From NCBI GenBank assembly GCA_963681505.1, contig OY811983.1:2772615-2836614 (forward strand): DNA of 64,000 nt. Direction: 5' to 3'. Positions within the stretch are counted from its first letter, which is position 1; the number at the start of each line of letters is the position of its first letter. The stretch is from Eunapius fragilis (lineage: Eukaryota; Porifera; Demospongiae; Spongillida; Spongillidae). The position numbers and the translations under genes were made by a program. Below are positions 3,101-60,000 of this stretch, piece by piece. The notes under the pieces are model-generated. The model saw nothing but the letters and a program-made list of their open reading frames with translations, was not told where the DNA came from and did not search any database.

Positions 3101-3530
3101 CCTGTAAAAGGCTTGCCTGAAATGGTCACATGCGCGGCATTTTTAGACCAAATGGAGGCATATCCTTTGACTGTACCTATTATTGGTTTAAGTATAGAAT
3201 GTAGAGCAGCACAAGATTACAATGGTTGATTTCGTAGCGCCTAATTTGAACGTTAGATAAATGACCACAATACCGTAACGTTGAAACGTGTTCTAATTAC
3301 AAACCTAATGTCCCACTCAAAACACCACGCTTGCAGAGGTTGAATTAGGAAGTAAACCCCCCCCCCCCCCCCCCCCCCCCACCCCTTCCCTGTCCTGATG
3401 GCCTCTGTGAGGCGATGTAGGCAGAAGTTGGAGTCTGTCGGACTGCTGATAGCCCTTGGAATCTAACAGCGACGCCGAATTTGATGTCGATTGAGCTAGT
3501 GCGGCGGGCATATTTTTGGCGGCTATTTCA
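111..3530. other. stretch without recognisable genes
   Basis: Only short reading frames with no family resemblance are seen on either strand. A CAGGGGCGGAT motif near 625 matches the tip of the TIR element at 46508, but no partner end is visible, so it may be a solo scrap. A pure C run of about 23 bases lies near 3358-3380. Confidence 0.4.
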
Positions 3531-3533
3531 TCA

Positions 3534-3619
3534 AATGACTTGGCACCATGGGAGCAGCTCGAAGCCTACAATTTCTTTGATCTCGCAATGGCGCCTGGAC
3601 AAGGTGTCCAAATGTGCTA
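3534..3619 (+). CDS. possible short first coding exon, unknown product
   Basis: ATG at 3534 opens a frame that stays open to a good splice donor (AG|GTAAGTTAG) at 3620. The peptide (MTWHHGSSSKPTISL...) is unlike any family I know. No convincing next exon was found; a long G run follows at about 3687-3713. Low confidence; listed because the start and donor are both well formed. Confidence 0.15.
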
Positions 3620-6295
3620 GGTAAGTTAGTTTTTTTTTGGTTGTCACTATCAGTTATGCATTGTGTTCGCATTTCAACCTAGGAGAGGGGGGGGGGGGGG
3701 GGGGGGGGGGGGGTGCCGCTCACACACAACTGCAGTTCTTTTCAAGGTTGAATGAGTTGTGAAGCTTGGCTATTCTTAATTTGTCTACTGAACTGTGGGT
3801 TAATCAAAGGTTGATTGTTGTCATCTGTTACATGCTATAAGTTATGCAATGCTGTTAGCAGTTATTCTAGGTGGTGACTTTCAAACAATTGGAGAATGCT
3901 TTCTGTACTTGGCCTTCGTAGTAATTTAACGATGGGAGCAGACAGCACTGTGAAAAACCATACAAGCCTTTTCAACCCCTGGCTGTGTTACAGAGATTTT
4001 TGCACTGCACACTGTTGCATGTACTGCTGGCTAGCTTAACTGTTTGGGTCAGAATACAATGTCAACAATAAAAGTTAGTTCCACTAGTCTAGTCCGAGGA
4101 CCATATCATACTTTATAATATGGTCTGGTTCCCTAAACTATAGATAGTCATATCCAAATGTAATCATATAATAAACATCAGAAAAGCTCTTTGCCAGAAT
4201 ATTTTTTGACTGGTTGTTACAAAGGAAGAAACATCATATTTGCAGGAAACTGTTGGATAACAGATTTTGCCTTCATGAACATGTAATTGGCCAAATGCAC
4301 TTGAAAAGACTCACAAGTACTACTATCAGATACAAGGACAATGAGCTGAATGTGAACTGGAGTATTACGTCTTCGACTGTTGGACACCTCATGGGATGCA
4401 CATCAAATGCATTTTATCTGATATGCTATTCAAAGCTATTAAGCCATGTAGCTCTTGACAATTTCTTTGTTAAAGTGTTATACTGAATGGTATATAACAC
4501 AACAGAAACACAAACTTGGCAGTGAAGGCACCCCTCATTAAAAATGACACCTACTGCTGCATGGTGCTATGGAATGGATGAATGTGCAATGGTAATTTAG
4601 TGGTTTCATCGTTTGGTGCCTATCACAATGAAAAAGGTACTGTTATGCACTTAAGCTTTTCATTATTGTGTTCTGCAATAGTTTGTCTCCGAGGCTCACA
4701 GTCCTCATACCATCGACCGAGTCTTCTTGAGAGTCCAATTGACCTCATGTGTTCATCCTAAATTATTTCTGCATTGTCACTATTTCTCCTTAATGAGCGT
4801 AAGTTGTATTTTTATTTTATTTTTATTTTTAATAACAAACTATTATTATTGATACAGTACAAACACATAAATACATCACACAGACACATGATACGCACAA
4901 AAACAAGTTGCTAGCCTACTGAAGTTCAGGAGGTAGTATGGACCTGGACAGGATCGCGGTGGCATTGGCCCTGACCAGATTCATGCTCAACCTCCCGTAC
5001 AGTTGTATTATTATTGTTGTGATTGTTATGCACTATAGTGTATAACACTGTATATTGCGTATATATGCATATGATGTCCCAATATATTAATGTTATACAC
5101 TAGTGTACAAAAATCCTTTTTGCACTGTGTAATCAGAGAAAATAATTCCTTAAGAGGGTAAGATTTTGTTTTCACCATCCTGGCTTATATGAATCCTGTA
5201 TGGAACTTGCTTCCACAGGTTTTGGGACTGAAAGGAGAGAGAAATTTGTTTTGCTAACTGATCCCAGTTTAGTGTGTGTTCAGTGGTGTAAGTACAAGGA
5301 ATTCAAAATTACTGAATGGATACAAAGGTATGCCTTTGTTACTGTCACCATTACCTTACATCAACACTATAGCCATATCAGCATATTTAGTAGCATAATT
5401 GGGAAATGGTGGAAACATCTTCTCTTTCCATTCATTGCGTGCAATTGCAACATTGTATAGACTTCAACGAACATTGACATTCATTCAGTGAACTGATTTT
5501 GGAAGGTAGACATTTTTGGGTTTTGAAATAGTGATTTCCTTCTTAAGTTTAAAGCGCTAGCATGAGTACTATTTACAATCTGAAAGCACTAAATACGATA
5601 AAGTCTGGCTTTGTAATAGTAAAGTCTGCTTTGAAGAGTACTATTGTGGCCTCAGAGCTGACCAGAGAATTAATTCTGAACACATGCATGCAAACCGTCT
5701 AGCTTTGGCGGCCATGTCTGCATGACATACATGCACATAAAAATTAGTAAGGCCGGGTTATCAATGTCTTAACTGAGAGTCATGATCAAGTTTCTTTGAT
5801 GCGAATTGGGAAATTTTTTTTTACACAACTAATCTGGTGTGATAGGGCACAGAATGTGGACATAGGGCTGAGTACAGATGACTTATAATAACAAGTCATC
5901 TGTGCTCAGCATTCAAATGAGGTTGTGTGAAAAGCCTATCAGTATAGTGTATCGATCAAATTGTGTGAAGACTATATATGCTTTGGGAAAGTACTGGTGC
6001 CATGAAATCACACATGCAAAACTGATAAATTTAGAGTAAAATGTGCCTACAAGTATAACAATAAGGTCACTACTCCGTAGATGAACTTGCGGGCCGACAC
6101 TCTCCCTACGTGCATTAGTCAAACATATCATGTAACTCGCGATCAGAAGCTCGCTGAATGAAGTTAATCGTGTATACACTATAGCTCCTATATAAACAGC
6201 TCTGTTATGGGTACATCCTGGCCACGGGTGCATGGGTTCAGTATGCGGCACAACTCTATACAGTCTCGTTTCCGCATTATAAGTGTACACATATT
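3620..6295. other. gene-poor interval
   Basis: AT-rich sequence with a long G run near 3687-3713, a small inverted repeat at 4099-4125, and the hairpin at 5868-5909. Reading frames of 86-125 codons here look like chance openings: no signal peptide, domain or splice context is seen. Confidence 0.4.
5868..5909. repeat. perfectly spaced 17-bp hairpin
   Basis: Arms 5868-5884 and 5893-5909 are reverse complements with one mismatch (a G-U pair in RNA), with an 8-base AT loop. It is likely a small foldback element or its remnant. Confidence 0.6.
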
Positions 6296-6307: not shown

Positions 6308-6370
6308 GTACTCCATGCACTGATTCAGTACAGAGGGGTTTTCTGCAGACACGATTAGTATACGCTAGCT

Positions 6371-8311
6371 ATGGTGGCTTCGCTCTCTAGTGTCGTCTTT
6401 TTGTTAGTGTTGTCTATCTACCTGGCTATCTCGAACGTCGAAGGAACAGAGTCCCAAGGGAGGCCAGGGAGGATCAGCAAATATGACCGATGGGAGCAGT
6501 TCGTGATGAGAACGGTTGACAAATTTAGCCCCGGTCGTGTCCTGGCAGAAGGTCTGGGCGATGAAACGGCACATATTCAGGATATTAAGTCGTACTACAG
6601 GGAAGAATTTGACAGCAGCGAAGGTTGGATAGATGTCACAAGTCGCAGCAGAGCAAAAATTGAAGCGCAGTCGACAGACGATGCGGACGAAAAATTTTCG
6701 GTTCGGCAAAAAACGATCGAAGGTCGCTACATTGTTAACTTGGCCCAGGCGTCAACAAGTCAAGTTTTGGACCGTATGGTTCACATCCTAAAAAAAGCTA
6801 CTAGGGACACGAAACAGGTTTTGCGCGCTGACCACATCGATACATTCCTACACGCGGGTAAAGGCTTCACTGCTACTATGAACAAGAACATGGTTGAACT
6901 GGTAAGTACGCATGCAGCTTCCATTCCTCTGCCATTCCGGCATGACTATATGCATGTGGCTATACTCTGTGAGTGGCGCTTCAACGCGGTTCGAGAATAT
7001 GAAAATACGATATAGGTTTTCAAAGGCGCTATCGATGCATATTTATACTCTACATGCATGACTTTAATTAGTGTGGCAAACTACCGATTATTACGTCATC
7101 ACTGTGAAATGACGAAAGGACTTATTATTGTATTCTAAACCTATGTACATGTTAATGCGTTCTACGTATACGGACGACACCGGCCTAGCTGGGAAATTAT
7201 CCACACGGGTATATATACTGCATACATCTCTTTTCTCTTAGTTGTAATGCTATTTTCTCTCCTTTGCTGTTATCATAAGGTACGAAGCCACCCATCAATT
7301 GTGAACATTGAAGAGGATATAGCTGTTCACATGAAGTTCTTTGATTATGGCGAGCTCTCCAGTGATCTTCAGAGCAATGCTCAGTTTGACAAAGAAGGAA
7401 ATGAGCCTGTAATAAGCAGCTCCAGAGTGCCATGGAACCTAGATCGGATCGATCAGCACTCCAAAGTATTAGACGGGCAATACAATCCAGAAGGCACAGG
7501 CAAAGGAGTGGACATCTACATTGTGGACACAGGAGCACGCTACACCCACCAGGACCTGGAAGGTCGCGCCAAGTATTTCGGTGTGGATATGATCGACAAA
7601 CAGACGGGAAGCAACCTGAAGGGCTATGACTGCAACGGGCATGGCACTCACATCGCTGGCACCATAGGGGGAAAGACATATGGTGTAGCCAAGGAGGTCA
7701 CCATGCACATCGTGAGGGGGCTGAATTGTGCTGGAAAGGGTGCAGTCAGTGGGGTTGTCCATGCGATGAACCTCATCGCCAAGCGTAAGTCTCCCAACCC
7801 AAAGGTGATATCCCTGTCAGTTGGCATTGAGAAATCCAATGCACTAAACACTGCACTGAAAAGTATGAATGACAAAGGGATCACCACTGTGGCAGCTGCA
7901 GGTAATCAAGGAAGCAACTCTTGCAATTACAGCCCTGCATCTTCTGGCGTTTCTATCAGCGTCGGAGCTACTGATTCCTCCGATGAGATTGCATCATTCT
8001 CCAACACTGGAGCCTGTGTGCACCTATTTGCTCCAGGTAGGGACATAGTTAGCATCGCCCATACCTGTGACACCTGTACAACAATGATGTCGGGAACCTC
8101 CATGGCCTGCCCTCACGTGACCGGCTATGTGGCAATCATCTTGGGTTTGGATCCAACCCTCACACCAGCAGAGGTCCTCCAAAAAGTAATACAGAAGTCC
8201 ACCAAAAATGCACTAAGTACCAATTTCAAGACTCTCAAGGATACTGCTGCTACCACTCCTAATCGCCTATTGTATGTGTCTGGAATACGGGCTGATGATG
8301 GCGACATGTAA
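6371..8311 (+). CDS. secreted subtilisin-family serine protease (proteinase K-like), copy 1
   Basis: Two coding exons, 6371-6901 and 7280-8311, with a 378-bp GT-AG intron in phase 0, encode about 520 aa. A signal peptide (residues 1 to about 25, ending ...SNVEG) is followed by a propeptide whose end (ELVRSHPSIVNIEED, across the junction) matches an I9 inhibitor domain. The S8 catalytic domain has the full triad: Asp260 in IVDTGAR, His298 in NGHGTH and Ser451 in SGTSMACPH, with the oxyanion Asn386 in AAGNQG. Length and order fit secreted proteinase K-type enzymes made as zymogens; the role (digestion, defence or remodelling) is not shown. The exon 2 start was chosen because the paralogue keeps the same AAG|GTACGAAGC acceptor. 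It is the upstream member of a tandem pair with 12929-15601. The family call is certain; the splice model is very likely. Confidence 0.92.
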
Positions 8312-9877: not shown

Positions 9878-11405
9878 GACCCCCCTGCCCTTATGTACCC
9901 ACTGTCAGCTGGACACCCAGCCCACGTACCCACTGTAAGTAGCTGCACCCCTGCCTCATGTACATGTATTGGACCCCCTGCTTTCATGTACCCACTGTAA
10001 GCAGCTGGACCCCCTGACTGCCCCCTGCCTCCATGTACCCACTGTTACACTCTGCCCACATTCACCCACACTGTAACCCCCTCTCCCCATGTGCCCACTA
10101 TAAGCAGCTGGACCTCCTGCCCCATGTACCCACTGTAAGCAGCTGGACTCCCTCCTCCCATGTGCCCACTGTAAGTAGCTGCACCCCTGCCCCATGTACA
10201 TGTATGCAGCTGGACCCCCTGCCTTCATGTACCCGCTGTAAGCAACTGGACCCCCCCATGTGCCTACTGTAACCCCTACCCACATGTATCCACTGTAAGC
10301 AGCTGGACCCTCCATGAACCCACTTTAAGCAGCTGGACCCCTGTCCACATGTACCAACTGTAAGCAGCTGGACCCCCTCCCCCATGTACCCACTGTAAGC
10401 AGCTGGACCCCCTCCCCCATGTACCAACTATAAGCAGCTGGACCCCTCCCCCATGTACCTACTGTAAGCTGCTGGACCCCCTCCCCCATGTACCCACTGT
10501 AAGCAGCTGGACCCCCTCCCCCATGTACCCACTGTACGCAGCTAGACCCCCTTCCCCCATGTACCCACTGTAAGCAACTGGCCCCCCTGCCCCCATGTAC
10601 CCACTGTAGGCAACTGCCTCCCCCTTGCCCCCATGTACCCACTGTAAGCAACTGACCCCCCTGCCCCCATGTACCCACTGTAAGCAACTGGCTCCCCTGC
10701 CCCCATGTACCCACTGTAAGCAACTGGCCCCCCTGCCCCCATGTACCCACTGTAAGCAACTGGACCCCCTGCCCCCATGTACCCACTGTAAGCAACTGAC
10801 CCCCCTGCCCCCATGTACCCACTGTAAGCAACTGGCCCCCGTGCCCCCGTGTACCCACTGTAAGCAGCTAGACCCCCTTCCCCCCCATTTACCCACTGTA
10901 AGCAACTGGCCCCTTGCCCCCATGTACCCACTGTAAGCAGCTGGACCCCCTCCTTCATGTACCCACTGCAAGCAACTGGTCCCCCTGCCCCCATGTACCC
11001 ACTGTAAGCAACCGGCCCCTTGCCCCCATGTACCCACTGTAAGCAACTGGACCCCCCTGCCCCCATGTACCCACTGCAAGCAACTGGCCCCCCTGCCCCC
11101 ATGTACCCACTGTAAGCAACTGGCCCCTTTCCCCTATGTACCCACTGTAAGCAACTGGCCCCCCTGCCCCCATGTACCCACTGTAAGCAACTGGCCCCTT
11201 TCCCCTATGTACCCACTGTAAGCAAATGGCCCCCCTGCCCCTGTGTACTCACTGTACTCTCTGCTCCTATGTACTCACTGTAAGTAGCTGGACCCCCTGC
11301 ACATGCCCCAAAGTACCTACTCTAAGCAGCTGGATCCCCTGCCCCATGTTCCCACAGTAAGCAGCTGGACCCCCTGCCCTCATGTACCCATTTTAAACCC
11401 CCTCT
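9878..11405. repeat. minisatellite, about 33-36 bp unit
   Basis: Some 1.5 kb is made of roughly 40 copies of a unit carrying CATGTACCCACTGTAAGCA followed by a CTGG and a C-rich stretch. Copies in the middle (about 10550-11220) are closest to each other; the flanks are worn and vary in length, as expected for unequal exchange or slippage spreading from a core. Long frames on both strands are by-products of a unit length near a multiple of three, with no sign of a real protein. It lies between the two tandem protease genes. Confidence 0.92.
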
Positions 11406-12421: not shown

Positions 12422-12928
12422 CAACTTGATAACGTCGTGATCAACCGTTTGACCTAGTTGCTATCGCCTATCGGTTTCTTACACGAACTGCTAACTTTAA
12501 AATGTTAAACATGCAGAGCCATGCACTTTGAAAAAAAAACTATCAAGTTCATCCCATCTACAATACAAATCTATGCGCTGTCGTCGTGAGTTTGTATACA
12601 AGCCAATGAGTTAAAGAACTACCGCGAGAATCGAAGCGTATCTGTTTGTATAGTCAGTGTTTGAGTGCTGATGTGGCTTAAGTTACGATCATGGTACTTG
12701 CGGCAACTGATAGAGCACAAGTTTAAGAACCTTAAAACAGCTGAACTCCCATATCAACAGAACTAAGCTACGAGTGTCGTGTTCAAAAAGAGTAGCGCAC
12801 TTGTTCGATTGCACACGCAGCCATTTCAATATTCCTGACCGTATATAGGTACACTGTTTTGAAACAGTACCGGTGACGAACGGGAATTTCTGCCGGAACC
12901 AACAACTAATTACATAGCTATCGGTGCG

Positions 12929-13533
12929 ATGGTCTCGCTCACGACTGTCGTCGTTTCGTTTGTATTGTCTATCTACCTGGCTATCCCGAACGTCGAAGGA
13001 ACAGAGTCCCAACGGAGGCTAGGGAGGATCAGCAAATATGACCGATGGGAGCAGTTCGTGATGAGGACGGTTGACAAATTTAGCCCTGGCCGTGTCCTGG
13101 CAGAAGGTCTGGGCGATGAAACGGCACACATTCAGGATATTAAGTCGTACTACAGGGAAGCATTTGACAGCAGCGAAGGTTGGATAGATGTCACAAGTCG
13201 CCACAAAGCAGAAGTTGAAGCGCAGTCGACAGACGATGCGGACGAAAAAATTTCGGTTCGGCAAAAAACGATCGAAGGTCGCTACATTGTTAACTTGGCC
13301 CAGGCGTCAACAAGTCAAGTTTTGGACCGTATGGTTCACATCCTAAAAAAAGCTACTAGGGACACGAAGCAGGTTTTGCGCGCTGACCACATCGATACAT
13401 TCCTACACGCGGGTAAAGGCTTCACTGCTACTATGAACAAGAACATGGTTGAATTGGTAAGCAGTTATAAAGCATGTCGTCGGACTTCAAAACGATTGAA
13501 CCTTTTTTGAATAGGTTATGTCTCTGATAGAGC

Positions 13534-13568
<35 letters not shown>

Positions 13569-15601
13569 TGTGTGTGTATGTGTGTGTGTATGTGTGTGTG
13601 TGTTTGTGTGTGAGTGAGTGTGTGTGTGCAGCGATCATATAGGTGATCTGGTGTGTGTGTGTGCATATGTGTATTGCGTGTGTGAGTTGTGTGCGTTGTG
13701 AGTTGTGTGTTGTGTGAGTTCTGTGTGTTAGTGATGTGAGTTGTGTGTGTTGTGTGTGTTAGTGAGTTGTGTGTATTGTGTAATGTGTGAGTTGTGTGTG
13801 TGTGTTGTGTGTGTGTGTTGTGTGTGTGTGTGTGCGTGTGTGTGTGTTTGTGTGTTTAAAGTGTCCATGTGTGTGGTCAGCGGAGCAGTTTGTTGTCTTT
13901 CACGTGCGTATTCAAGTAAAGTACACACCGGATAATTTACAAATCCAGTTCCTGGTAGAAGCATATAAAATGCATGCACTCTTTGGCTTCTATTTATGTA
14001 CCATACCTTGTACCCATTCCCACAAGGGCCGCGGTATGTGCACCCCCCCCCCCCCCCCCCCCCCCCCCCCCTACCGAAGTATTAAAAAGCACTTTACACG
14101 TAGAGTGAAACTAATTATTCATGACACTAAATGCCATTTTAAAAACTGCCCAATTGAGGCTACGGGAAAGGAAAAAAAAAAGTGGATAACACCAAAGCGG
14201 TTTGAAAGCTATTGCGCATTATAGTTTGATAAGACCATTCCTCTTGCATGTAAACACAAAGGTGCCCGAGGCTCAAGGAGCTGTTTTGCGTGAGCTCTAC
14301 ACGGGTGTGGTCGGAAAATAAGCGTGACTGTGGGCGGAGAAAGTTTTAGAATAGTGTCTGGCACTTTTTAATTTGCCACTCCCTCCCAACGTCGACTGTG
14401 GTTCCTAATTAAGCAACTCCTTACTTACGCATTGCATCACAATGATAGTTTTCCCATAACATATAAACATTTCTAATGCATAAATGCAAACATTGAATAG
14501 TCAGTATACTGAGCTGGCACTATATATTACATTACCTAATACATTTTTATTTCCATGCACCTATTTTTAAAGGTACGAAGCCACCCATCAGTTGTGAACA
14601 TAGAAGAGGATATAGCTGTTCACATGAAGTTCTTTGACCATGACCAGCTCTCTGGTGAACTTCAGGGCAACATTCAGTCTGAAGAAGAAGGAAACAATGA
14701 TATCATAAGCTCCAAAGTGCCATGGAACCTAGATCGACTCGATCAGCACTCCAAAGTATTGGACGGGCAGTACAATCCAGAAGGCACAGGCAAAGGAGTG
14801 GACGTCTACATTGTGGACACAGGAGCACGCTACACCCACCAGGACCTGGAAGGTCGCGCCAAGTATTTCGGTGTGGATATGGTCGACAAGCTGACAGGAA
14901 GTGACCTGAAGGGCTATGACTGCAATGGGCATGGCACTCATGTTGCTGGCACCATAGGGGGAAAGACATATGGTGTAGCCAAAGAGGTCACCATGAACAT
15001 TGTGAGGGGGCTGAATTGTGCCGGAAAGGGTGCAGTCAGTGGGGTTGTCCATGCAATGAACCTCATTGCCATGGTTAAATCTTCCAACCCAAAGGTGATA
15101 TCCCTGTCACTTGGTATTGAGAAATCCGATGCACTAAACACTGCACTGAAAAGTATGAATGACAAAGGGATCACCACTGTGTCAGCAGCTGGTAATCAAG
15201 GAAGCAACTCTTGCAATTACAGCCCTGCATCTTCTGGCGTTTCTATCAGCGTCGGAGCTACTGATTCCTCCGATGAGATTGTATCATTCTCCAACACTGG
15301 GGCCTGTGTGCACCTATTTGCTCCAGGGAGGGACATAGTTAGCATAACCAACGCCTGCGACTCCTGCACAAGGGCAATGTCAGGAACCTCCATGGCCTGC
15401 CCTCACGTGACTGGGTATGTTGCAATCCTCTTGGGTTTGAATCCAACCCTCACACCAGCAAAGGTCCTCCAAAATGCAATATATAAATCCACCAAGGATG
15501 CCATTGGTACTGATTTCATGATGCTCAAGGATACTGCTATAGCCACTCCTAATCGCCTCCTGTATGTGCCCAGCATAGGAGCTGCTGATGCTGATGTGTA
15601 A
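12929..15601 (+). CDS. secreted subtilisin-family serine protease (proteinase K-like), copy 2
   Basis: Coding exons 12929-13456 and 14573-15601 are joined over a 1116-bp phase-0 intron and encode about 518 aa. The layout is that of copy 1: signal peptide (ending ...PNVEG), I9-type propeptide, then an S8 domain with Asp258 (IVDTGAR), His296 (NGHGTH), Ser449 (SGTSMACPH) and the AAGNQG oxyanion region. All catalytic residues are present, so it should be active after propeptide removal. The intron is three times longer than in copy 1 because it took up a GT-rich microsatellite and a long C run. Exon 1 is far closer to copy 1 than exon 2 is, suggesting local gene conversion. Differences in exon 2 are mostly conservative and surface-like. 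Confidence 0.92.
13531..13860. repeat. (GT)n / (GCGT)n microsatellite in protease copy 2 intron
   Basis: A GCGT core at about 13535-13570 grades into impure GT repeats to about 13860. Frames read through it (for example CVCVCVC-type peptides) are artefacts of the repeat. Confidence 0.9.
14043..14071. repeat. long C homopolymer in intron
   Basis: An almost pure run of about 29 cytosines inside the intron of protease copy 2, one of about a dozen such runs in the window. Confidence 0.85.
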
Positions 15602-24385: not shown

Positions 24386-24898
24386 TTAACTTGATACAAT
24401 GCGCTTCCAGAAAATAACCTTGTCGTCGACCGGGCCGTAGAATTCTGGTATTTGCCCAACTTGCAAGTACCCTTGTCGAACGTAAAAAGCGCGCGCACGC
24501 GCCGTTGACTCGGTAGATGAAGTACTGATGAGTAGAATACGGGCACCATTCCGCGATGCTACTGCTTCGAAGTCCGCTAGCAGTAGAGCGCCCACGCCGT
24601 GACCATGATATTCCGGCAGAACCCCGATCCACCAAAGCTCCCACACTCCCTCTTCGTGTGCGTCCGGAGAAAAGTATGTCCAGCCCATCGGCGCGGAAGG
24701 ACCGTCTACGACCCTAGTCGTGTGTCCTGCGCCGAGAGAGCCCTTCAATATGCCTCCAAGGAGCTGCTCGGCCTCACCGGGGTTAAACAGAGATGTTGCC
24801 ACGGCAATTTGTAAAAGAGCTTCTGTATCCTCTGGCACAACGGCCCTAACTGGTTTGTGGAAAGCCATGGGCCTGACGGTCGGCACGCCCGAAGCCAT
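24386..24898 (-). CDS. GNAT-family N-acetyltransferase, intronless
   Basis: A single minus-strand frame of 170 codons starting MASGVPTVRPMAFHKPVRAV. Residues of about 85-115 carry the acetyl-CoA-binding motif A (WWIGVLPEYHGHGVGALLLA, an H-G-H-G-V-G version of Q/R-x-x-G-x-G/A), and the C-terminal part has ARAFYVRQGYLQVG, the usual end of the fold. It should transfer acetyl from acetyl-CoA to a small amine or protein N-terminus; the substrate is not predictable. It is complete, has no introns, and is clearly richer in G+C than its surroundings. That fits gene transfer from a bacterium or fungus, or a retrogene; I cannot tell which. The next ATGs lie inside the domain, so the first was taken as start. 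Confidence 0.8.
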   Translation of the reverse strand: MASGVPTVRPMAFHKPVRAVVPEDTEALLQIAVATSLFNPGEAEQLLGGILKGSLGAGHTTRVVDGPSAPMGWTYFSPDAHEEGVWELWWIGVLPEYHGHGVGALLLADFEAVASRNGARILLISTSSTESTARARAFYVRQGYLQVGQIPEFYGPVDDKVIFWKRIVSS

Positions 24899-25491
24899 AT
24901 GTAATTGACCACACCTCTTCCTCCTTGCACCACGGCTGCTACGTCACGTCCAGCAATTTCGGCCTTCCATACACGTCTGTACATTGACATTGAAAACGCA
25001 TGCAAAGTATTTGATTGGTTTCAAACTTTAACGCAGTAGGATTATAAATAATGCATTTGTTTATTTTTCGCTTTCATTTTGCGAGCAGGAGAATCAACAA
25101 CATTACTTTTTGCTATTACGCAATAATTTTCTTTAGAGGTCAATAATGATTAATAACATCAAATGTGGGCGCGCCCTTATAGTGCAAATTATAAGTGCTG
25201 GTGCGTGTGTGAGTGGGAGGAGCGTGTTGTTTTCTAAATGCTCGTAATGTGGTTCAATACATTTGAATATTTCTTTCATCAGCGTGAATAGACGAACGTG
25301 CGCTCGGCGTGTACATGTATATTCATTGTAACATGGGTTAATTGTGGGTACGCGTGGGTGAGAAAGGGGCGTACAGGGTGGAGGGTACCCTTTTAAGAAA
25401 TCTGAGGATGGGTGTTTTTAAAGAAATATTCCCCCCCCCCCCCCCCCCCCCAGCGCCTCGGATACATCGCTAATTAACTTCGAACCGCTGT

Positions 25492-49403: not shown

Positions 49404-50996
49404 GTGGCTATAATCCATGCCCCACAACAAACACGGTATCGTGCCAAGTTGTGCATAGCAAGTGGTTTTGTGAGTTTTGACGCAAAGCTAGGTCTTTTCC
49501 TTGTAAAGGGCACAACTGGTACAGCAAGAGTAGTAACAGTCTTTCCAACTGAAACATGTAGCTGTCCCTCTAAATGTGATTGCTACCATATACTTGCAGT
49601 GTAGATGAGCATCGGCATCCCTGCAGTTAACGAGCGTAGAATTACTAACCTGTCTCAGCTTCAGAAAAACACCAGGAGCAAGGGAGATAAGAGAAGTGGC
49701 AAGAAACGTCCTCATCATAATGATGTTGAAAGTGAGTTATGTTTCATGCGTTAACTGTGTTGATATGACTAAACTTATTTTAACTCCAGGCAATGCACTT
49801 CAGATAGATGAAACTGATGAAACAGATCAGCTAAAGCAATTAGTGGGTGTGGGTGGTAGTCTAACAGAAGAGAAGAAATCACCAGATGATGAAGCAGCTC
49901 AAACAGAAGAAGTGAAACTACCAGCAGGGGAAGGTGATAGCACCACTGAGGTGGAACTACCAGGTGATGAAGATTATTAATAGAACTGATGAAGTGAGAC
50001 AACCTGAAGGTGAAGATGTTAGAACAGATGAGGTGGAACTACAACAAGGTGAAAATTATCTAGATGAACACATGAAACAGCCTGAGGATTGTACAAGTGA
50101 GTAAATATGGACTATAATTGTTTTATGAGACTTAGCTCAATCTATCATGGATGTATGTATTTTTGTACATAGGTTTGGAGATTGTTGGTCAGTCAAATAC
50201 ACACAAAAATGCATCTAGTGGGCATGCTTCCCAAGAACATCAAAAGCCTAACCCAGTTACTGTGTCGGGAGATTGTGAACAAATGGTTGAATCAAGAAAT
50301 CACTTGGCCATGAATTTGGCGAAGGTGACCCGTGAAAGAGAAAGAAAAGAGTTATCAGTCTAACTCAACTTCAAACATTCCTATAACTTTAGATTATGGT
50401 GAAGACCTAAGTACAGAAGATGAAAAAGTTTGGATTGAACGATTTCAACTATATGAGCATGACAAAAGAATTCTAACGGTTGATTATTTCCAATATAGGA
50501 GCAGAGGATCCTGCATCAATCCTTATATATGACAGTCTTTTCCATCAGTGCTCTCCACACGTCCAGCAGCAAGTAGCCACTATTACCCGGACCAAATCAA
50601 GTGAAATAAATGTTCACTTTGTGGATGTCAGCGTCAAAGTGGAGGTGGTGATTGTGGACTTTTTGCAATTGCATTTGCCACTTCTATCTGTTTTGGAACC
50701 CACCCAGAAACAAAGTTTTATTTCAGGCAAAAATGAGGCAACATTTGATGAAGTGCATTGAAGAAGGTGTAATGACAGAATTTCCAGTGCAGCGCACAAG
50801 ACGCTGTACAGCTAAGATAAAGAACAAACAAGTCATAAAGGTTTATTGTATTTGCAGAATGCCTAGGATGGCACTTGAAGCTATGATTGCCTGCAGTCAA
50901 TGCAAGGAATGGTATCACGGTGACATTTGTATTCAAGTCCCAAAAAAGGCATGGGAGCACAGTACCAAATGGCTATGTGACAAATGTAGTGTGTAG
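49404..50996 (+). mobile_element. KDZ/Zisupton-like DNA transposon remnant (SWIM, ULP1, PHD)
   Basis: Three domains follow in order on the plus strand. A SWIM zinc finger (CSCPSKCDCYH, about 49548-49580) is followed after an in-frame TAG by MSIGIPAVNERRITNLSQLQ and a basic KRSGKKRPHH stretch. An acidic linker follows (49790-49978). Then comes a ULP1-type cysteine protease end with QRQSGGGDCGLFAIAFATS (catalytic Gln and Cys, about 50630-50690), and, in another frame, a PHD finger (CICRM...CSQCKEWYHGDIC...WLCDKC, 50848-50990). SWIM plus ULP1 is the known signature of Kyakuja-Dileera-Zisupton transposases; a PHD finger at the end fits a chromatin-reading targeting module. The reading frame changes at least twice, so the copy is dead. 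No terminal repeats were identified. Confidence 0.6.
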
Positions 50997-51066: not shown

Positions 51067-51715
51067 GTAACCCTTTTGGTTGTAGAAGTGTTTGGGGGAT
51101 GGAGAATTGAAGCTATCAATGTACTTTCAACCTACGGAAAAGTATCCACACAGCTATGTCGACCTCAGAATGAGGTTATAAAGGTAAATGGTACTATATC
51201 AGCTTATATTTCAACGCATGCGCATTTGTTCCGTGGAATAGTCACGGAACGGGACGGAATATTTCGTGGCGTTCCGTTCCGTTCCGTGTTTTAGTAACGC
51301 CCCTTGGCAACACCTAGACAACCGATGACCTGTGGAATTCGCTGTACAACAAAGTACTTAAAGGGAATAAACACATCAATGCTCTTACATGATTTGGTAC
51401 GCCTTTGAAATTTATAGAAAACTTTAAATCACGTGCTCTTAGCGTGTTACTACCTGGCTGTTGCCACTCGAAAGCAGCCACCCCCGATCGGATATTGGGG
51501 ACCTACCGAGAACAAATTTTTGGCTTATGTTTTTGGAACGTAGGATGGCAGAAATAAACCTTTCCTGGTAAGCTTGATAGATTGTGCTATCATTTTTTGC
51601 CTAGAACTAAGCTTGACGCATTTTCTGAAGTGGTTTTTAAGTTATGTAAAATCGGCCATTTTGATCCACAAGGTAATGTGATCGCGTATGATGGTGGATA
51701 AGTACAAGCGATAGT
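51067..51715. other. interval with TTCCG repeats, no gene
   Basis: Near 51225-51290 GGAACGGGACGGAA and its complement TTCCGTTCCGTTCCG form a small imperfect inverted repeat. Nothing else is recognised. Confidence 0.4.
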
Positions 51716-53601
51716 CTAGGTATCATCAAGTGACTTCTTCAGAGGTGGTATAGCTGCTACCATGTCAGGAGCTATATTGCTGACTAAATGTTCCTTCAGG
51801 ATACACTTCAGCCTTTCTACCTTGTCTGGTATTGCAGTGGATGCTCTTCCTAGGGAGTTGAACATAGCATTTACTTTTCTAATTGTATTTTAGTGAAGCT
51901 GTCATCCGCTGCAAAGCAACAAAACACACAGATGTTTTGAACAGAGTTTGGAGCTGCTACATTCACTATTTGAAATTTTGCTTTAAATGTCCCTCCTCTT
52001 TTTTGTCCCCTCCAAGTTTTAACCACACCTCATTTTCAGGTATCATGCCATTGTGCCATGTCAACCTGCCTGTCCTGCAACAGTCCACCATTATATATTA
52101 TGTTGTAGATGAATTTCTGTTACCTGTGGTTCTCGCCAAGAAGCTGAGTGACCTTCTGGATCAGATTTGGTATGAACACAAGGGGGGCAGCCTGCAGTTC
52201 TTCTCCACCAGAGGTTAGTGTAAATGAAAATGGTGCCAGTTCACCTTGTATGTTGTCACCCACTATCCTTTTTGAGACCTGTCGCATTCTCTCCTCACAA
52301 GCCAGGGACACATCTGGTGCCTTTAGCCATCTGAAATGTTGGATATCATGGTGAAAGTGACTGTTAATGACTTCTACGTACCTTCTGAGCAGTCGTATCG
52401 TTTTCCATGGAATGGCAAGTCCTACTTTTATGGCTAATACCTCATCTTTATTTCATCAGCGATGCCTACCTCCTTTAGCAAAGACTTCCGTTCTTCATCA
52501 TTAAGAGAGAGCACATCACTTTGAAGCAGAGCAGATGGCTCTCCAATTCTTCGAATATCCTGCAACTCCGAGCATCTCGACTGGAGTGTCCTTGTACATA
52601 TGGTAGTGGACACTGCAGTTAGATTGTGGGCATTGGTTACATGCATGAATGTTATTGGCTATAATGAGTGAGAACATAAAATTATGCAACAGTGCATGTT
52701 GACATTAAATATGCTTAACTGTTCCCCCTGTAGAAAGTTGAAATACACCTTTCTCAGGACTGATCCTTTTGATGAGTTTAGCAGCTGATCGTTGCTCCTC
52801 ATGTTGGGGTGCACTCATGATGCTCATATATACCAGCCCTCATATCTCTTGTACAGATTGTGCAGTGGACCAGGACATCCTTCAACATCAGGATCACTAG
52901 GTTTGATACTGGCTTAATGTGCATTGCCTCACATGAACAGCAGCAAGGACAATGTACTGAGCCTGTAGTTCTTACCCAATGTATGATGCACTGGGCGCAA
53001 CAGGGAAGTTCCATTGGCTGTGTAAGAATGTCCAAATATACTGGGCACTCAAGGTGGTCTTTGCTAAATGGAGGTCTTGGATAAGGATGCTCAAATGAGA
53101 TGACTGGAGGAGGGGCACTCTTATTGACACATCGCAAGAGCGCCTTTTGCATTTTCATGAATGTGCTCACACATCTGTATGCATAGCAACACTTCATTTT
53201 ATGTTGGCACATGTGTAGTCATCCACTACCTTGCATTCCTGGTCTGAATGCCTCTCCCACTGGAAGGGGGCAGTGCCACATTTGCAGTGAATTTTCCTGT
53301 GCATGACACTGATCGCCTTGTCTAATGCACATTTGCAGAATGGACAGAAGTGTTCAGGATGAAATTTCTTGTCATCGTTGTTGGTATCAATACCAACAGT
53401 ATTTAGCAATTTTGCAGCATATGGTTTGAAAAGATATATGGGGGATGTACATTTGCTCTTTGCCTTTAACAACCTTTTGGCACACACCCTGCAGTGTACT
53501 GCGCATGCGTAATGTGATAATCCATTCCTGATATGTGTTAACAAACGCATGTATATACGTATATATAGTAAGAACAACCGCAACGCATGTCGATTATTCA
53601 T
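51716..53601 (-). mobile_element. N-RAG-type DNA transposon remnant: RAG1-like N-terminal zinc region plus transposase-like core
   Basis: Reading on the minus strand, 53601-53194 carries a CRVCAKRLL cysteine pair, then HPEHFCPFCKCAL, then FQWERHSDQECKV, in the order of the RAG1 N-terminal zinc-binding region. Next, 53212-52799 has a RING-like LECPVYLDILTQPMELPC...HCPCC and VSNLVILMLKDVLVHCTIC...EHHEC, matching the RAG1 RING and its following zinc finger; the RING has lost its second Cys and the central His. Further on (52646-51716) lie LAIPWKTIRLLRR, ACEERMRQVSKRIVGDNI, LTWHNGMIPENEVWLKLGGD and a C-terminal end (ERLKCILKEHLV...KKSLDDT, stop at 51716-51718). These are unlike the RAG1/Transib core. 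The layout fits molluscan N-RAG-TP transposons as I remember them. Frames shift several times; the copy is dead. Confidence 0.6.
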
Positions 53602-54050
53602 ATAAAAAGCCTAACTACTTCGTGTCTCCGTCAACGGTTAAGGATTGGGTTTTCTAGTTGTTCCAGGTCGGATGGTGAAAGGATAGGATGCCTACCTTTA
53701 TCGGTCGTTCCCGGAGTCCGCTCGAAAAAGTCTTGCAACGCAACCTCCATTTTCGCTTCCGCGTGACCGTATATAAACAAGTTGCGCAGTATTGTTGCAT
53801 TGTATTTGGGGAGTGCGTACCGAGTGTTTAGAATAAAGAAATGTGTTAGAAATAGTTTTTATATTATTTATGTGCATATTTAAAGGTACCGACAACATTG
53901 GATCATATGCCATTCTTAATGAGTGGTCTCCTTTTCTGATTTGGTCACGTACCGTAATGTTCTAATTATAAGCATAGTTTCCAGCCGCAAACAACCGTGG
54001 TACCCATGAAATAATTAGTAGGTCACATTGCGACGTGACGTAGCCGTCCA
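53602..54050. other. 5' flank of gene C
   Basis: There is no gene here. The last 100 bp have promoter-like features listed separately. Confidence 0.4.
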
Positions 54051-54092: not shown

Positions 54093-57000
54093 ATGGAGCG
54101 CTCGACTCGTCTATTTCTTCTCTTCGCGTCCCTTCTCACTGGCACTTACGCCAATGTACTCACTATTTACGGGTTTGTTCCCGGGAATAATGAGATCTAC
54201 TCCGCTCTTTACCACGTTCCCGCTGCCTGCATGGCACTTGATGACATTAACAACAGTTCACTGCTTCAAAACTACTCTCTACAGCTGATTGTTGCGGCGC
54301 CAGAGGTATCGATCTATAGGCATGTTGTTCCTGCATTGTAGTTTGTGTATATACACATAATTCAGTGCGTGAGTGACAGAGCGCAGGAATTTTCCGTTGT
54401 GTGCATCATGCATGCAGTCTAACATGCATTTGTGTATGTTTGTGCATCTAAGCGTGCATGTGCATTTGAGTAAGTGAATGAGGAGTGAGTGAGCGAGCGG
54501 GTGAGTGGGTGGGTGGGTGGGTGGGTGAGTGAGTGTGAGTGAGTGAGTGAGTGAGTGAGTGAGAGAGTGAGATCTAGAGAGAGTGCAAGAGAGAGGGAGA
54601 GAGAGAGACAAGAGAGGCAGAGAAGTGACAGACAAGACTGCGCATATCTAGTGATTCCTTCTTTGAATTGTGTAGTGTGATATGTCCGAAGGGGTGCTCG
54701 GCTTGATTGAAGCGGTTATCACAAGGAATCCCACTCGGGAGCAGTTGCCTGTGATGTTCCTGGACGGTGGATGTAGCGAGGTCACGGAATCCCTAGCAGC
54801 ACTCACGGGACAATTGTACAACGCCACAATGGTTAGCCTTAAACCATCCGAGGAATTGTAATTTAGTGAGAGCCGGGGTGCGCTATTTAAAATCGGTTGT
54901 ATTGCAAACCCATGCACTATATATACCAGCTGTTATCCTACTGGCAAACACCTGGAAATTAAGCATTCTACCTTGGCAACTTGAATGTAACTATTGCGTC
55001 ACTAATTCAGTTAGAATTATAGGGAAAGGGTTTGGAATTAATTGCACGGTCCAAGGGGTTCTCCATCCCTCTTGCCACACGTTACTTTGATTGAGTATAC
55101 CTTATCGTTCTATGCATGGAATCAAATATTTTGCTGTGTATCCTGATATTCTGATAATAATATTTCACGGTCCATTTTTTGTGACATGTTATTTTATCAT
55201 GGAAACACACGCGTTGTGTTTTTAGGTGTCGTTTGGTTCTTTGTCGCCGTCCCTCTTTGATCAAGACAGGTTTCCGAAGTTCTTTCGGACAGTTCCATCT
55301 GAAATCCAGGTGAACAGCCTACGGTTGGCCATCATGAATATGTTCAATTGGACTAGAGTTGCTACACTGCATCAGACTGATGATGCATTCTCTGTGGTAT
55401 GTGCAACCAGCATATATTTATTCGAATTTTAAAGACGGGAATCAATATTGTGATATTCACAGGACACCATAGCCATAAGTACAAACTTTTGGCATGTTTT
55501 ACAAAGCAACTGCTAATGATAATGCTAATATTGAAGTACTTCATGTAATGCATGTGTAATAACCTTTCTGGCCATGAAACGTACAATGTAATTATGTGAT
55601 GTGCTCCAGTTATTGCCTATTTTAAAAATGTAATTTTAAGTAAACACTTCATTTTCTTTACAGAGCAGTGATGATTTCAGTGCAAGTTATAACTTAATGT
55701 TTCAAAATGTCACAACATCGAACAAAGATGATGTATTGCTGATCTCCAGAAGTTTCACAGATAATCCTAGCATTCCTCTTCAACAGATGAAAGTAAGTAT
55801 TATTTGACTTGGTTCAAATAACTTCATATCTCGATCCTGATTTTCAACATTTTGCATGGGTGCATCTACATTTACCTTTTTTGTAACAGGCATTGCATAT
55901 GCCACACAGCAGTAGCTGGAAATAATGGTGATGAGGTTTGGGGGGGGGGGGGGGGGGGGCATTAAGGAATCATGACCGCCGTTCCGTATGTACTATGCAA
56001 CAAATGGCTGTCCTGTCCCCCTGCATGTGCAGTAATTATGATGCTACTTGATTACATACAACCTTTTAGCAACATTGCACAAATACAATCGCAACCCTCC
56101 AATGCAGTGTTTGGGTTTATGTTTAAAAATCTGGCTTTCATCAAAATCATCACTACAGGACGATGACGTCCGTATTATATTTGCTTGGATGCACGAAGAC
56201 AAAGCAGTTAAGGTATTCTGTGAGGTACGTGTTTCGTTGTAAACACATTGTGTACACATTTTATGTGTAGGAGTGATGGTTAGCTGTTAATGAGGGTGAG
56301 AATTCAAATTCCACTGATCCCAAATTGCATTATGGTAATGATTGTGTTATAGAATTACGTTGACGGTAATAAGCTAAGGAAGATGAACTTCCCTTTTAAT
56401 AGTTGTTATCCTTTAATCACAGATTGACCTATTGTGACTTAAGTCACAATACACTTTAATGAAGATACATTAAAAAAGAAATATAGGACTATTACATTAT
56501 TGGACCCTTGCTTCCTTCCTTTTTACACCATTATTGCCTTCCAATCCTATATGCCACCAACTTTCTCATAGAGAATGTTTTTATTACTTGTTAAATACAA
56601 AACTGTGACTTTGAAACTTCTAGCTCACACACTGGATGCATGTCTGTAAATACATGTATAAACACTCTGCTATGCATACCTTTTACAATACATGGCATTC
56701 TCTGTACACGCAATCTTACATAAAATGGATTGTGACTTATTAACCCATGTCGTGCGTGGTGTTGTATTGGGAGAACAGATTCGGCACCCTGTTCTCCAAG
56801 GAGACCAAACCCGATGTGCATTCTGTTGGCCCATTGCAATGATGGTTTTCCAGGAGGGGCATTTTGATGGAAGTAGTGGCTTTTGGAAATGCTTTCCTGA
56901 AACTCTTCCGGCATAAAGCAGGGTATAAGATATCATTTAACAGCAATATTATAAAATCAGAAGCTAGCCTCATGAAAGCCAGTGTTATAGGAACTGCTGA

Positions 57001-60000
57001 GTGGCAGCATGGGCACAAAACAGTAGCTGAAACTTTTAGCCATATCCAATGACACTGCACGGCAGCTCAATAGGCTAAGAAATGATCTTGAAACACAAGA
57101 GCATTCCAGCTCGCTCGGGGCAAGACAAATTGTCAGGTGCTACTGGTGGCCTGGGACAGCCAGGACCCTGATAAAGTAGCTGGTGCCATGACCTGGATAT
57201 GTTTGATCACAGTTTTGATTAATGGACTTGAACATCCCCCCCCCCCCCCCCCTCCCCTTTTTGCTGGTTTTGTGAAAATGCTCACAAATCTGATATTTTA
57301 ATTTCAACAAGCATAATTATATATTTGAACTTTATTTCTTACTATGCATCCTTAAGCTTTGTGACCATACCGCTGAAAAGGCTTCTTAGGGACACCTATA
57401 CTGCGGGCATCATGTCCCTGTCAATATAGTTATCTTGCATATAGGGTTTCAAACGTATTCTGAGTGCACGGCAGTATTGTGCATTTTGAGGCTATGACCT
57501 TGGCATCTCTGCTACATTTAGATATGATAATTGCAAGTAAGTTGTATTCAGAAACTGTTCTTGAAACGTATATCACAAAACCGTACGCGATAATGAGCTC
57601 ATTAAACACTGCTTAGATAGAGTTGCATGTATTCTGTTTAGAACCTTATTTTCCAATCCGAAACATACGTGGAAACAAACTAATGATTTATTCAAAGTGT
57701 ATTCATATATTGTAGAATCAGCCACATCATTCGGATCTGTTTATATAAAGGGTTTGAATGTTAACACCTTTGGTCAATCTATGTTACTAATTCCATGCAT
57801 TAGGCAATCAGGTTAGGGCTGACTACGAAGAATCATGTCTGGATCATTCCTGCATGGTACACACAAGACTGGTGGAAGAAAACAGCTACCGTTACCAACG
57901 GAAACTGTACCACTGAGGAGGTAAAGTGCTTGGCATTGATTGGATTTTATTTAATGCTTTTACACTATATTTCCATGCAGTTAGAAGAAGCACTGGATTT
58001 TGCCTTAGCTGTTGATGTCTACAGCTATTCTCTGGAACCTAACCTTCCTGGTGTGTCAGGGCATGTAAGTATAATTGATGGTTTTTATTCTGTGCAATAG
58101 CGTCTAAATGTGCTTTGAATATTTAACAAGACCTTGAAGAAATTCGTTGTGCATTTTTTGAACCTATTCGTCAATTCTAATATGTATTATTTTGCAAAAC
58201 TCTTTGGGTCATTTACAAAATTATAGAGGCACATTGATGTATCAACAGTACCATTTGATACTGTATTGCTCCATTGTCCTGCATTTCTGGAGCTATAGAA
58301 GTGTAGTATATATTTCCACTAGGATTACTCCCACATGTAAGACTTGTTGACAATTTAAGGTCATGACGAAGATTTAAGAACTTTGAACCTGGGGGATCAG
58401 AACATGGCGATTAGAAATATCTGTATCAGCTACGTTGATTTGCCTTGCCGATATATCTTTTGATCTTGTAATTATAAACCCACTTTTAAAAATAACGTTT
58501 CTTTGAAACCAACAAATGCTACCTTGTTCATTTTTCTGCACAGGATGCGAATCTATTTGTTAAGAATTACTGTCGTTATCAAACGGCATTTATGGACCTA
58601 GTAGCCAGAAACCTCACAAGCACTCCATTTTCATGCTTGGACTTAAAGCCAAACCAGGCTGCTAACAACTGCTCCATGAACAAGCATTCCTATACCCCCT
58701 TCACATACGATGCCATGTGGTCCATGGCCCTGGGCCTCAAGAGAGCTGAGGACAACCTGACTTCCAATTTCACAATGTCCCTCGCCAACTTCAGCTACAG
58801 CAACACTTACGTCACGGATGCCATCTTTGATGCCATGAAATTGACAAATTTCAGGGGAGTGTCTGTGAGTGCATGTATTGGGCAATAGGTTTAGTAATAC
58901 AATGAATTACTGTTGTTTTGTTACATGTTTTAGGGTAACTTGTCATTCGACTCCACTGGTACCAGGAATGGATTGAATGCACTGTATCAAATTAGTAGGT
59001 TGAATTGTTATCTGTACCCTTTGAACTGGCAGACAGTGATGTTTGCATATAATATAGATCGTATTACATTGCAGGAATGTTTCATGTTTGTAGTATGACA
59101 ACTTATACATGCTTGTAATTGTACCAGTGCTAGCTAAACACAGCATGGCAGACGAGCATGCCTTATTCATGTCCTTAATGCTCAGGGCGTGTTAAGTCAA
59201 ATGGTCTATGCTTGAAGATAATTGCTGTCCATGACCCACTGCGAGAAAACTACACATTTCAGAATTCAACTGACATTACTTGGAAAGGTAAGTACTTCTG
59301 CTTTGTGTGATTTCAGTCCATGGACATAATGGAATGAATATGTTATTCATTCCTCTCATATATATAACATAATTCCCTGTCATTGGAATAATTTTTTTAA
59401 AACATACTGAAAAAAATACCAATCATTTAATGTCACCATAATGAAATGATCTTAGTAATGGTTATTCTATGTTTATTAGTTTGTCTGCAAAAAATAATTA
59501 GCTACAATATTGTTATGAAAGTAAAGCATCAATATTTTTTGGCCTTGAAATTCTTTTTACCAATGATGGGATTTTAAATTGTTCACAAAACATTTTGTGA
59601 TTAGGTATGATAGCTGTCCACTAACAGTTAGTTAAATTGCACCAGCATCTTGTCAGCTTCTTGCTCTCAGCTGACCAACACCCTTGATTTTTACCAAACA
59701 GGTGGCTCAGTACCGTATGACAGGGTACTTGTTAAGCCAGTCTATCTCAGTTCAAAATTGGTGACAACATTCAACAGTTTCACCACCATTTGCATTGCCG
59801 TTCTTCTTGCCATTCTGGTTTTCAACACTGCTGCAATTCGTAAACCGTAAGTCCTTTGTGCATACATGTTAGCAGCATTGAGTGTCAGCTGCACAGCCTG
59901 ACTTGTCATGTGTTGCATTGGGGGTTCACCAGTGGTCAGTAATGAGAGTAATACACTTCTTGCACACTGGTTCATTCTGTACAATGATTGACCTGTTAAA

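What the first reader, a model, noticed from the sequence alone, without database searches (positions are those of the whole stretch)
51716..53601. RAG1-like N-terminal zinc/RING region in a transposon remnant of a probable sponge
The minus strand shows, in the RAG1 order, a cysteine pair, an HPEHFCPFC site, an FQWERHSDQEC site, a RING (LECPVYLDILTQPMELPC...CPCC) and a following CTIC...EHHEC finger. Behind it is a transposase-like part (WLKLGGD, LTWHNGMIPENEVW) that does not resemble the Transib/RAG1 core. This supports the idea, known from molluscan N-RAG-TP elements, that the RAG1 N-terminus comes from a separate transposon family, and would place that family at the base of animals. Domain order is seen; family naming rests on memory.
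Basis: partly seen in the sequence, partly recalled or inferred. Interest (0 to 1): 0.85.

Follow-up and report, generated by a model that had tools for sequence, protein, structure and literature searches.

The report
Chapaev transposon with RAG1-like front end
The window holds a dead copy of a jumping gene of the Chapaev superfamily whose enzyme carries the same zinc and RING-like modules, in the same order, as the front end of the antibody-gene recombinase RAG1; an unbroken sister copy exists in the same genome, so it is a new member of a known kind that can help test how RAG1 was put together.

Summary
Window 53999..51300 (minus) is a decayed DNA transposon with the RAG1 N-terminal zinc sites and a damaged RING in RAG1 order. 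It kept exons 1-5 and the tail of the last exon; the middle of its transposase is gone. A sister copy (L027) has an unbroken 11-exon, 956-aa gene. The sister family's first exon passes Pfam's RAG1 importin-binding cut-off. A four-row profile of the protein finds RAG1 first in the PDB, as one stretch over both N-terminal modules (E 2e-8); the RING alone is about as close to RNF125 in a single-sequence search. Elements are 4.5 kb with CACGG...CCGTG ends and 4-bp target duplications; the transposase shows C(2)C, LH and H(4)H. These are published Chapaev hallmarks, and Chapaevs with Chapa plus RING domains were described in 2015. So this is a Chapaev element, of a superfamily already grouped with Transib/RAG1, rather than an unrelated family. 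Homology of its core to RAG1 was only weakly supported here. Unexpected detail: the inner block of the ends sits 11 bp further in at the 3' end than at the 5' end, the offset of 12/23 recombination signals. Host phylum was not tested; the genome server stopped answering.

The parts
51300..53999 (-). decayed copy of a RING-bearing Chapaev-type DNA transposon; 5' end at 53999, last ~70 bp of the 3' end lost
   Evidence: matches of copies elsewhere in the genome start and stop here
53987..53999 (-). 5' terminal repeat CACGGTTGTTTGC
53973..53983 (-). inner terminal block TGGAAACTATG, positions 17-27 from the 5' end; the matching 3' block (lost in this copy) lies at 28-38 in other copies
53230..53499 (-). 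exon 1: RAG1-like zinc region (CRVC, HPEHFCPFC, FQWERHSDQEC)
   Evidence: 39% identity to exon 1 of L027; the same exon of L026 matches PF12560 above cut-off
52808..53122 (-). exon 2: damaged RING and following CTIC...EHHEC finger
   Evidence: 46% identity to exon 2 of L027
52455..52658 (-). exon 3, region after the GGT motif (RAG1 nonamer-binding/dimerisation position by order only)
   Evidence: 51% identity to exon 3 of L027
52129..52332 (-). exon 4
   Evidence: 66% identity to exon 4 of L027
51880..52050 (-). exon 5 with the first catalytic Asp (KLGGD, Asp codon 52007-52005)
   Evidence: 52% identity to exon 5 of L027
51874..51880 (-). internal deletion junction: residues about 524-906 of the L027 protein missing (second Asp, C(2)C, LH, H(4)H, Glu)
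51728..51874 (-). 3' part of exon 11 (C-terminal tail of the transposase)
   Evidence: 53% identity to L027 residues 907-954
56681..57155 (-). second Chapaev-type remnant: RING part, then GFGLLGEQGAES catalytic end
   Evidence: tblastn with the L027 protein

Best explanation
It is a non-autonomous, dead copy of a Chapaev-superfamily cut-and-paste DNA transposon. A sister copy (L027) encodes one 956-aa, 11-exon transposase made of a RAG1-type zinc region (taken to be the published 'Chapa' domain), a RING-like module with a following zinc finger, and a DDE core with C(2)C, LH and H(4)H motifs. Shown: domain order, an open spliced reading frame (splice sites chosen by hand), CACGG ends with a second conserved inner block, 4-bp target duplications, near-identical copies at different places, purifying selection on every part of the protein including the N-terminal modules. 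Inferred: the transposase binds the bipartite ends, pairs a short end with a long one, cuts at CAC, excises and inserts with a 4-bp stagger; the zinc/RING module serves dimerisation or control, as in RAG1, rather than catalysis. The window copy lost the second half of its active site and one terminus, so it can no longer make an active enzyme.
For: 57 DNA matches in the genome and 150 protein matches to the catalytic exon (150 of 333 candidates scored). Ends CACGG...CCGTG. 4-bp target duplications: perfect in 3 of 5 copies with both ends (L025 ATCT, L026 ACTA, L027 CCCC, the last in a C run) and 3 of 4 letters in the other 2 (L010, L019). Unbroken gene in L027: 11 exons, ten GT-AG introns, no stop. 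L026 and L027 are 98.8% identical over the element. RAG1 N-terminus: PF12560 28.1 bits for the exon-1 ORF of L026 against a cut-off of 23.3, 24.2 for the whole L027 protein; phmmer of that protein: best PDB hit RAG1, E 4.6e-5; four-row profile A2: one stretch 12-259 on RAG1 119-374, E 2.3e-8, best non-RAG1 hit RNF125 3.1e-4. dN/dS between L025 and L027: 0.16 overall, 0.27 zinc exon, 0.15 RING exon. Chapaev hallmarks as given in PMC4079192: 3-4 bp target duplication, CAC/GTG ends, C(2)C, LH, H(4)H; here CLYC, GLH, HVLEDH. Chapa plus RING in Chapaev: PMC4411706.
Against: No reference Chapaev sequence could be compared, so the name rests on hallmarks. Generic RING models stay below their cut-offs, and the His zinc ligand of the RING is K or Q here. 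Single-sequence scores of the RING alone are equal for RAG1 and RNF125. Profile comparison of the core with RAG1 failed (hhalign probability 0.1; no PF12940 hit). The window's own ORFs alone give no RAG1 match. L026 carries a 4-bp insertion in exon 11, so only L027 was read as fully unbroken.
Confidence: 0.86

Rival explanations
1. An independent N-RAG-TP-type family: RAG1 N-terminus carried by a transposon whose transposase has nothing to do with RAG1, later fused to Transib to make RAG1.
For: The core gives no significant sequence match to RAG1 (whole-core shuffle test 73 of 300). A review says N-RAG-TP of Aplysia is composed entirely of RAG1 N-terminal-like sequence (PMC8355894).
Against: L027 has the C(2)C and H(4)H motifs shared by Chapaev, Transib and RAG1 (PMC12730594). 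The second Asp lies 19 residues before the C(2)C in both proteins, and that segment aligns so that D708/C727/C730 match (8 of 1000 shuffles as good).
Confidence: 0.08
2. Chance clustering of cysteines or an unrelated TRIM/TRAF/RNF-type RING gene picked up by a transposon.
For: RING fragments match TRIM and RNF RINGs too, RNF125 equally well in one search; the CRVCG site alone also draws EGR1-type fingers (E 0.0018).
Against: RAG1 is matched over the zinc region, RING and following finger in one stretch. The zinc exon alone reaches the RAG1 family cut-off.
Confidence: 0.02
3. A true RAGL or Transib transposon (RAG1L with or without RAG2L) that has diverged.
For: Same N-terminal order as RAG1; CAC ends.
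Against: 4-bp not 5-bp target duplication; no PF12940 match above cut-off in the genome (one sub-threshold match). The one gene fills L027:1825-5305 of the element 1406-5935; no search for a Kelch gene was made.
Confidence: 0.04

Closest known systems
Chapaev transposons with Chapa domain plus RING finger (Kapitonov and Koonin 2015, PMC4411706, passages; Repbase Reports 2007, not seen)
   Same: zinc domain then RING then DDE transposase; CAC...GTG ends; 4-bp target duplication within the stated 3-4 bp; C(2)C, LH, H(4)H
   Different: RING His ligand replaced; ends carry an inner block offset by 11 bp (no statement on this seen for Chapaev); sequences themselves not compared; host unnamed
RAG1 / RAGL (ProtoRAG) transposons
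   Same: order of N-terminal zinc sites, RING and finger; DDE with C(2)C and H(4)H; CAC start; asymmetric ends in some
   Different: no RAG1-core profile match; 4-bp instead of 5-bp target duplication; a RAG2-like partner was not searched for
Transib
   Same: CAC ends, DDE with C(2)C/H(4)H; some Transibs have 12/23-type asymmetric ends (PMC8355894, passages)
   Different: Transib lacks the RAG1 N-terminal region and makes 5-bp duplications (PMC7204232, passages)
N-RAG-TP of Aplysia
   Same: transposon-borne RAG1 N-terminus
   Different: not available for comparison; described in a review as N-terminus only (PMC8355894), whereas here the module is fused to a transposase

Membership tests
[quoted passage not shown]
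   CAC at both ends in L019, L025, L026, L027; L010 has CAC at the 3' end but CGC at the 5' end
Chapaev superfamily | 3-4 bp target site duplication | tested here: met
   4 bp perfect in 3 of 5 copies (one in a C run), 3 of 4 letters in 2 of 5
Chapaev superfamily | DDE with C(2)C, LH and H(4)H | tested here: met
   L027: D482, D552, C571-x2-C, GLH, H879-x4-H884, GEQGAES; lost in the window copy
Chapaev superfamily | clusters with reference Chapaev transposases in a tree | not testable with these tools
   no Repbase or eukaryotic protein collection on hand
RAG1 N-terminal (importin-binding) family PF12560 | score above curated cut-off | tested here: met
   28.1 (exon-1 ORF of L026) and 24.2 (whole L027 protein) against 23.3; window ORFs themselves: no hit
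RING (C3HC4) | score above Pfam cut-off and all eight ligands | tested here: not met
   best 19.8 against 30; the His position is K in L027 (CGKLAC) and Q in L025 (CRQLAC) by eye
Transib/RAG1 core PF12940 | score above curated cut-off | tested here: not met
   no hit for the L027 protein at E<=1; whole genome one sub-threshold match, 21.3 against 25
RAGL transposon | 5-bp target duplication | tested here: not met
   target duplication is 4 bp
RAGL transposon | RAG2-like Kelch gene beside RAG1L | not tested
   no Kelch search was made
N-RAG-TP | similarity to the Aplysia element | not testable with these tools
   sequence not held
12/23-type signal ends | terminal block and second block at spacings differing by 11 bp | tested here: met
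   inner block at position 17 in 8 of 8 5' ends and at 28 in 8 of 9 3' ends, with substitutions in some; no function of the offset tested, and the block is not the RSS nonamer sequence

The most novel reading that the evidence does not exclude
The two ends form a 12/23-like pair. A terminal block CACGGYTGT is followed by an inner block TGGAAAYTAGG that begins 11 bp (one helical turn) further in at the 3' end, and the block ends at positions 27-28 and 38-39, where nonamers of 12- and 23-signals end (28 and 39). If a RING-bearing, RAG1-ordered transposase outside the RAG/Transib branch also demands one short and one long end, then both the RAG1 front end and the 12/23 pairing rule would be older than RAG and Transib.
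Probability: 0.2. Interest if true: 0.82.

Novelty: new member of a known kind. Interest (0 to 1): 0.5.

Why it matters
RAG1's N-terminal zinc/RING half is missing from Transib and its origin is debated (fusion with N-RAG-TP, or inheritance from a Chapaev-like ancestor). Here is an apparently unbroken element, with a 98.8% identical sister at another site, in which that half is fused to a DDE transposase and kept under purifying selection. That is what the 2015 proposal of an early Chapa-RING-core fusion predicts, and it gives material for laboratory tests of an N-terminal RAG1-type module in plain transposition. The one-turn offset between the two ends, if functional, bears on the age of the 12/23 rule.

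Tried and rejected
Pfam on three window ORFs: nothing relevant. phmmer of the window RING: 9 weak hits, RAG1 not among them. hhalign of the Chapaev core (rows of A2) against human/mouse RAG1 core: probability 0.1 and a wrong register; too few diverged rows. Shuffle tests by segment: NBD-like 79 of 1000, D1-C(2)C 8 of 1000, H(4)H-Glu 251 of 1000, whole core 73 of 300; mismatched controls 667, 141 and 996 of 1000: suggestive, not proof. Viral contigs: no match; genome contigs: 9 pattern hits, none confirmed. PF12940 over the genome: one sub-threshold place (ORFs of L029), not pursued. PF12560 over the genome and a survey of all ends: not completed. A neighbouring PHD finger (50652-50996) was considered as a RAG2-like partner and set aside: matches of other copies stop at 51294-51300.

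Papers: passages only of PMC8355894, PMC4411706, PMC7204232, PMC4298943, PMC12730594, PMC8289069, PMC11844651, PMC4079192, PMC12220107; all others only as listings. 'Chapaev' with 'sponge': 7 papers listed, one opened, where the sponge passages shown concern a transposon named Spongebob. The listings showed no report of RING Chapaev in sponges nor of asymmetric Chapaev ends, but they show 15 of 880, 12 of 93 and 10 of 104 papers; not exhaustive, and Repbase is not held.

Full report
Observation. The stretch is repetitive: 57 DNA matches in the 219-Mb, 24-contig genome of the window (40 of 90 candidates scored). Twenty places were fetched (L009-L028; L009 is the window copy itself).

Element boundaries. 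Matches of other copies begin near 54000 and stop at 51294-51300. Comparing ends showed that the true 3' end lies about 70 bp beyond 51300 and is missing from the window copy; the complete ends are CACGG(C/T)TGTTTGC...GCAAACAGCCGTG, with variants. Five of the 20 fetched loci have both ends within two mismatches of the search pattern (L010, L019, L025, L026, L027): 4-bp target duplications are perfect in three (ATCT, ACTA, CCCC; the last lies in a run of C) and match at three of four letters in two. L025, L026 and L027 are 4550, 4530 and 4530 bp; L026 and L027 are 98.8% identical at different sites, from which recent movement is inferred.

Gene. L027 reads as 11 exons with ten GT-AG introns and no stop, 956 residues; the splice sites were picked by hand from the reading frames and the start codon is assumed. 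L026 carries a 4-bp insertion in exon 11. Each of the 11 exons has a match in L025, without stops except in exon 1 upstream of its second Met. Matching the exons to the window shows that the window copy keeps exons 1-5 and the end of exon 11 and lacks residues of about 524-906. L012, a decayed copy closer to the window family, still shows parts of all 11 exons. Of the 20 fetched loci, eight show both the RING exon 2 and the catalytic exon 5 (L009, L010, L011, L012, L019, L025, L026, L027).

Relation to RAG1. The exon-1 ORF of L026 passes the curated cut-off of PF12560, RAG1 importin binding (28.1 against 23.3 bits), and its best PDB match is a RAG1 N-terminal chain (E 2.3e-4), followed by EGR1-type zinc fingers (1.8e-3). 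The whole L027 protein finds mouse RAG1 first among 177,635 distinct PDB sequences (E 4.6e-5); for the RING alone the RAG1 chain 1rmd (1.3e-4) and RNF125 (1.4e-4) are equal. A profile from four rows gives one continuous stretch, residues 12-259 on RAG1 119-374, E 2.3e-8, with 1rmd at 1.2e-5 and the best non-RAG1 hit, RNF125, at 3.1e-4. RING models of Pfam stay below their cut-offs, and the His ligand of the RING is replaced by Lys or Gln, so ubiquitin-ligase activity should not be assumed. For the core, PF12940 gives no hit and hhalign fails. By position, D552 lies 19 residues before C571 in L027, as D708 before C727 in RAG1, and in both the second His of H(4)H is five positions after the first (the distance between the two Asp differs, 70 against 108). 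The D1-C(2)C segment aligns in register, with 8 of 1000 shuffles as good; the flanking segments are not significant (79 and 251 of 1000), nor is the whole core (73 of 300). The core is therefore compatible with, but not shown here to be, a homologue of the RAG1 core; published work groups Chapaev, Transib and RAG1 (PMC12730594, PMC4411706, passages).

Filing. Published Chapaev hallmarks are 3-4 bp target duplications, CAC/GTG ends and C(2)C, LH, H(4)H motifs (PMC4079192, passages). All were met in L027. Kapitonov and Koonin (PMC4411706, passages) wrote that two subgroups of Chapaev carry the Chapa zinc domain followed by a RING, and inferred that both were fused to the core in the common ancestor of Chapaev, Transib and RAG1. 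The window element fits that description. DUF1280, hit by exon 5, is named by Pfam as a family of unknown function.

Selection. Between L025 and L027 dN/dS is 0.16 over 948 codons; 0.27 for the zinc exon, 0.15 for the RING exon, 0.11-0.17 for the rest; dS is high (0.61-1.22). The N-terminal half was thus maintained in the lineage, not a passenger.

Ends. Beyond the terminal block both ends carry TGGAAA(C/T)TAGG, starting at position 17 from the 5' end and 28 from the 3' end; in L025, L026 and L027 the pattern occurs with no mismatch only at these two places, and 0 of 400 shuffles of one L027 end reached its 12-of-12 match (best 11, twice). Counting all ends printed, the block is at 17 in 8 of 8 5' ends (TGGAAACTATG in the window and L010, TGGAAAGTAGG in L016) and at 28 in 8 of 9 3' ends (one substitution in L013, L024 and L028; L010 has lost it). 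Copies of one family are not independent; three subfamilies are represented (window type, L025, L026/L027). The 11-bp offset equals the 12/23 difference. A review states that the only transposition with 12/23 asymmetry outside V(D)J is in some Transibs (PMC8355894), and ProtoRAG has 27/31 (PMC8289069). The plainer reading is an 11-bp insertion in one end of an ancestral symmetric repeat, carried along by descent. The inner block does not resemble the RSS nonamer in sequence. No function was tested.

Limits. Fetches did not complete from then on and searches of the genome, so the 622-aa open relative on contig 12, the end survey and the PF12560 survey could not be read. No Repbase or eukaryotic protein set was available.

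Noticed in passing
window 50652-50996 (+): PHD finger (PF00628, 30.8 bits) about 300 bp beyond the truncated 3' end of the element, opposite strand; other copies' matches stop before it, so it is probably unrelated.
   Followed up: partly
window 56681-57155 (-): A second Chapaev-type remnant: RING part followed by the GFGLLGEQGAES end, i.e. probably another internally deleted copy; no terminal repeat within 2 mismatches was found near it.
   Followed up: partly
G000 contig 12, about 711732-711998 (+): Catalytic-exon relative inside a 622-aa open frame, 73% identical; could not be fetched, would be a good candidate for a structure of the core.
   Followed up: no
L029 1483-1926 (+): The only PF12940 (RAG1 core) match found in the genome, 21.3 bits, below cut-off, with a GLGSLSEEPLEHNNKNLRRYR end; perhaps another CMC/Transib-type transposase.
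   Followed up: no
window 6359-8311 and 12863-15601 (+): Two similar copies of a subtilisin-like protease gene (named by eye from the ORFs).
   Followed up: no
window 24386-24943 (-): Single open frame of 185 aa that looks like a GNAT acetyltransferase (named by eye), in a stretch of GC 0.47.
   Followed up: no
window 58496-58888 (+): Weak receptor ligand-binding region match (PF01094, 22.2 bits, below its cut-off of 25.4); the element may lie near receptor-like genes.
   Followed up: no
window 10325-11204: Minisatellite-like array by eye in the translated ORFs, in a stretch of GC 0.54 with strong strand skew.
   Followed up: no
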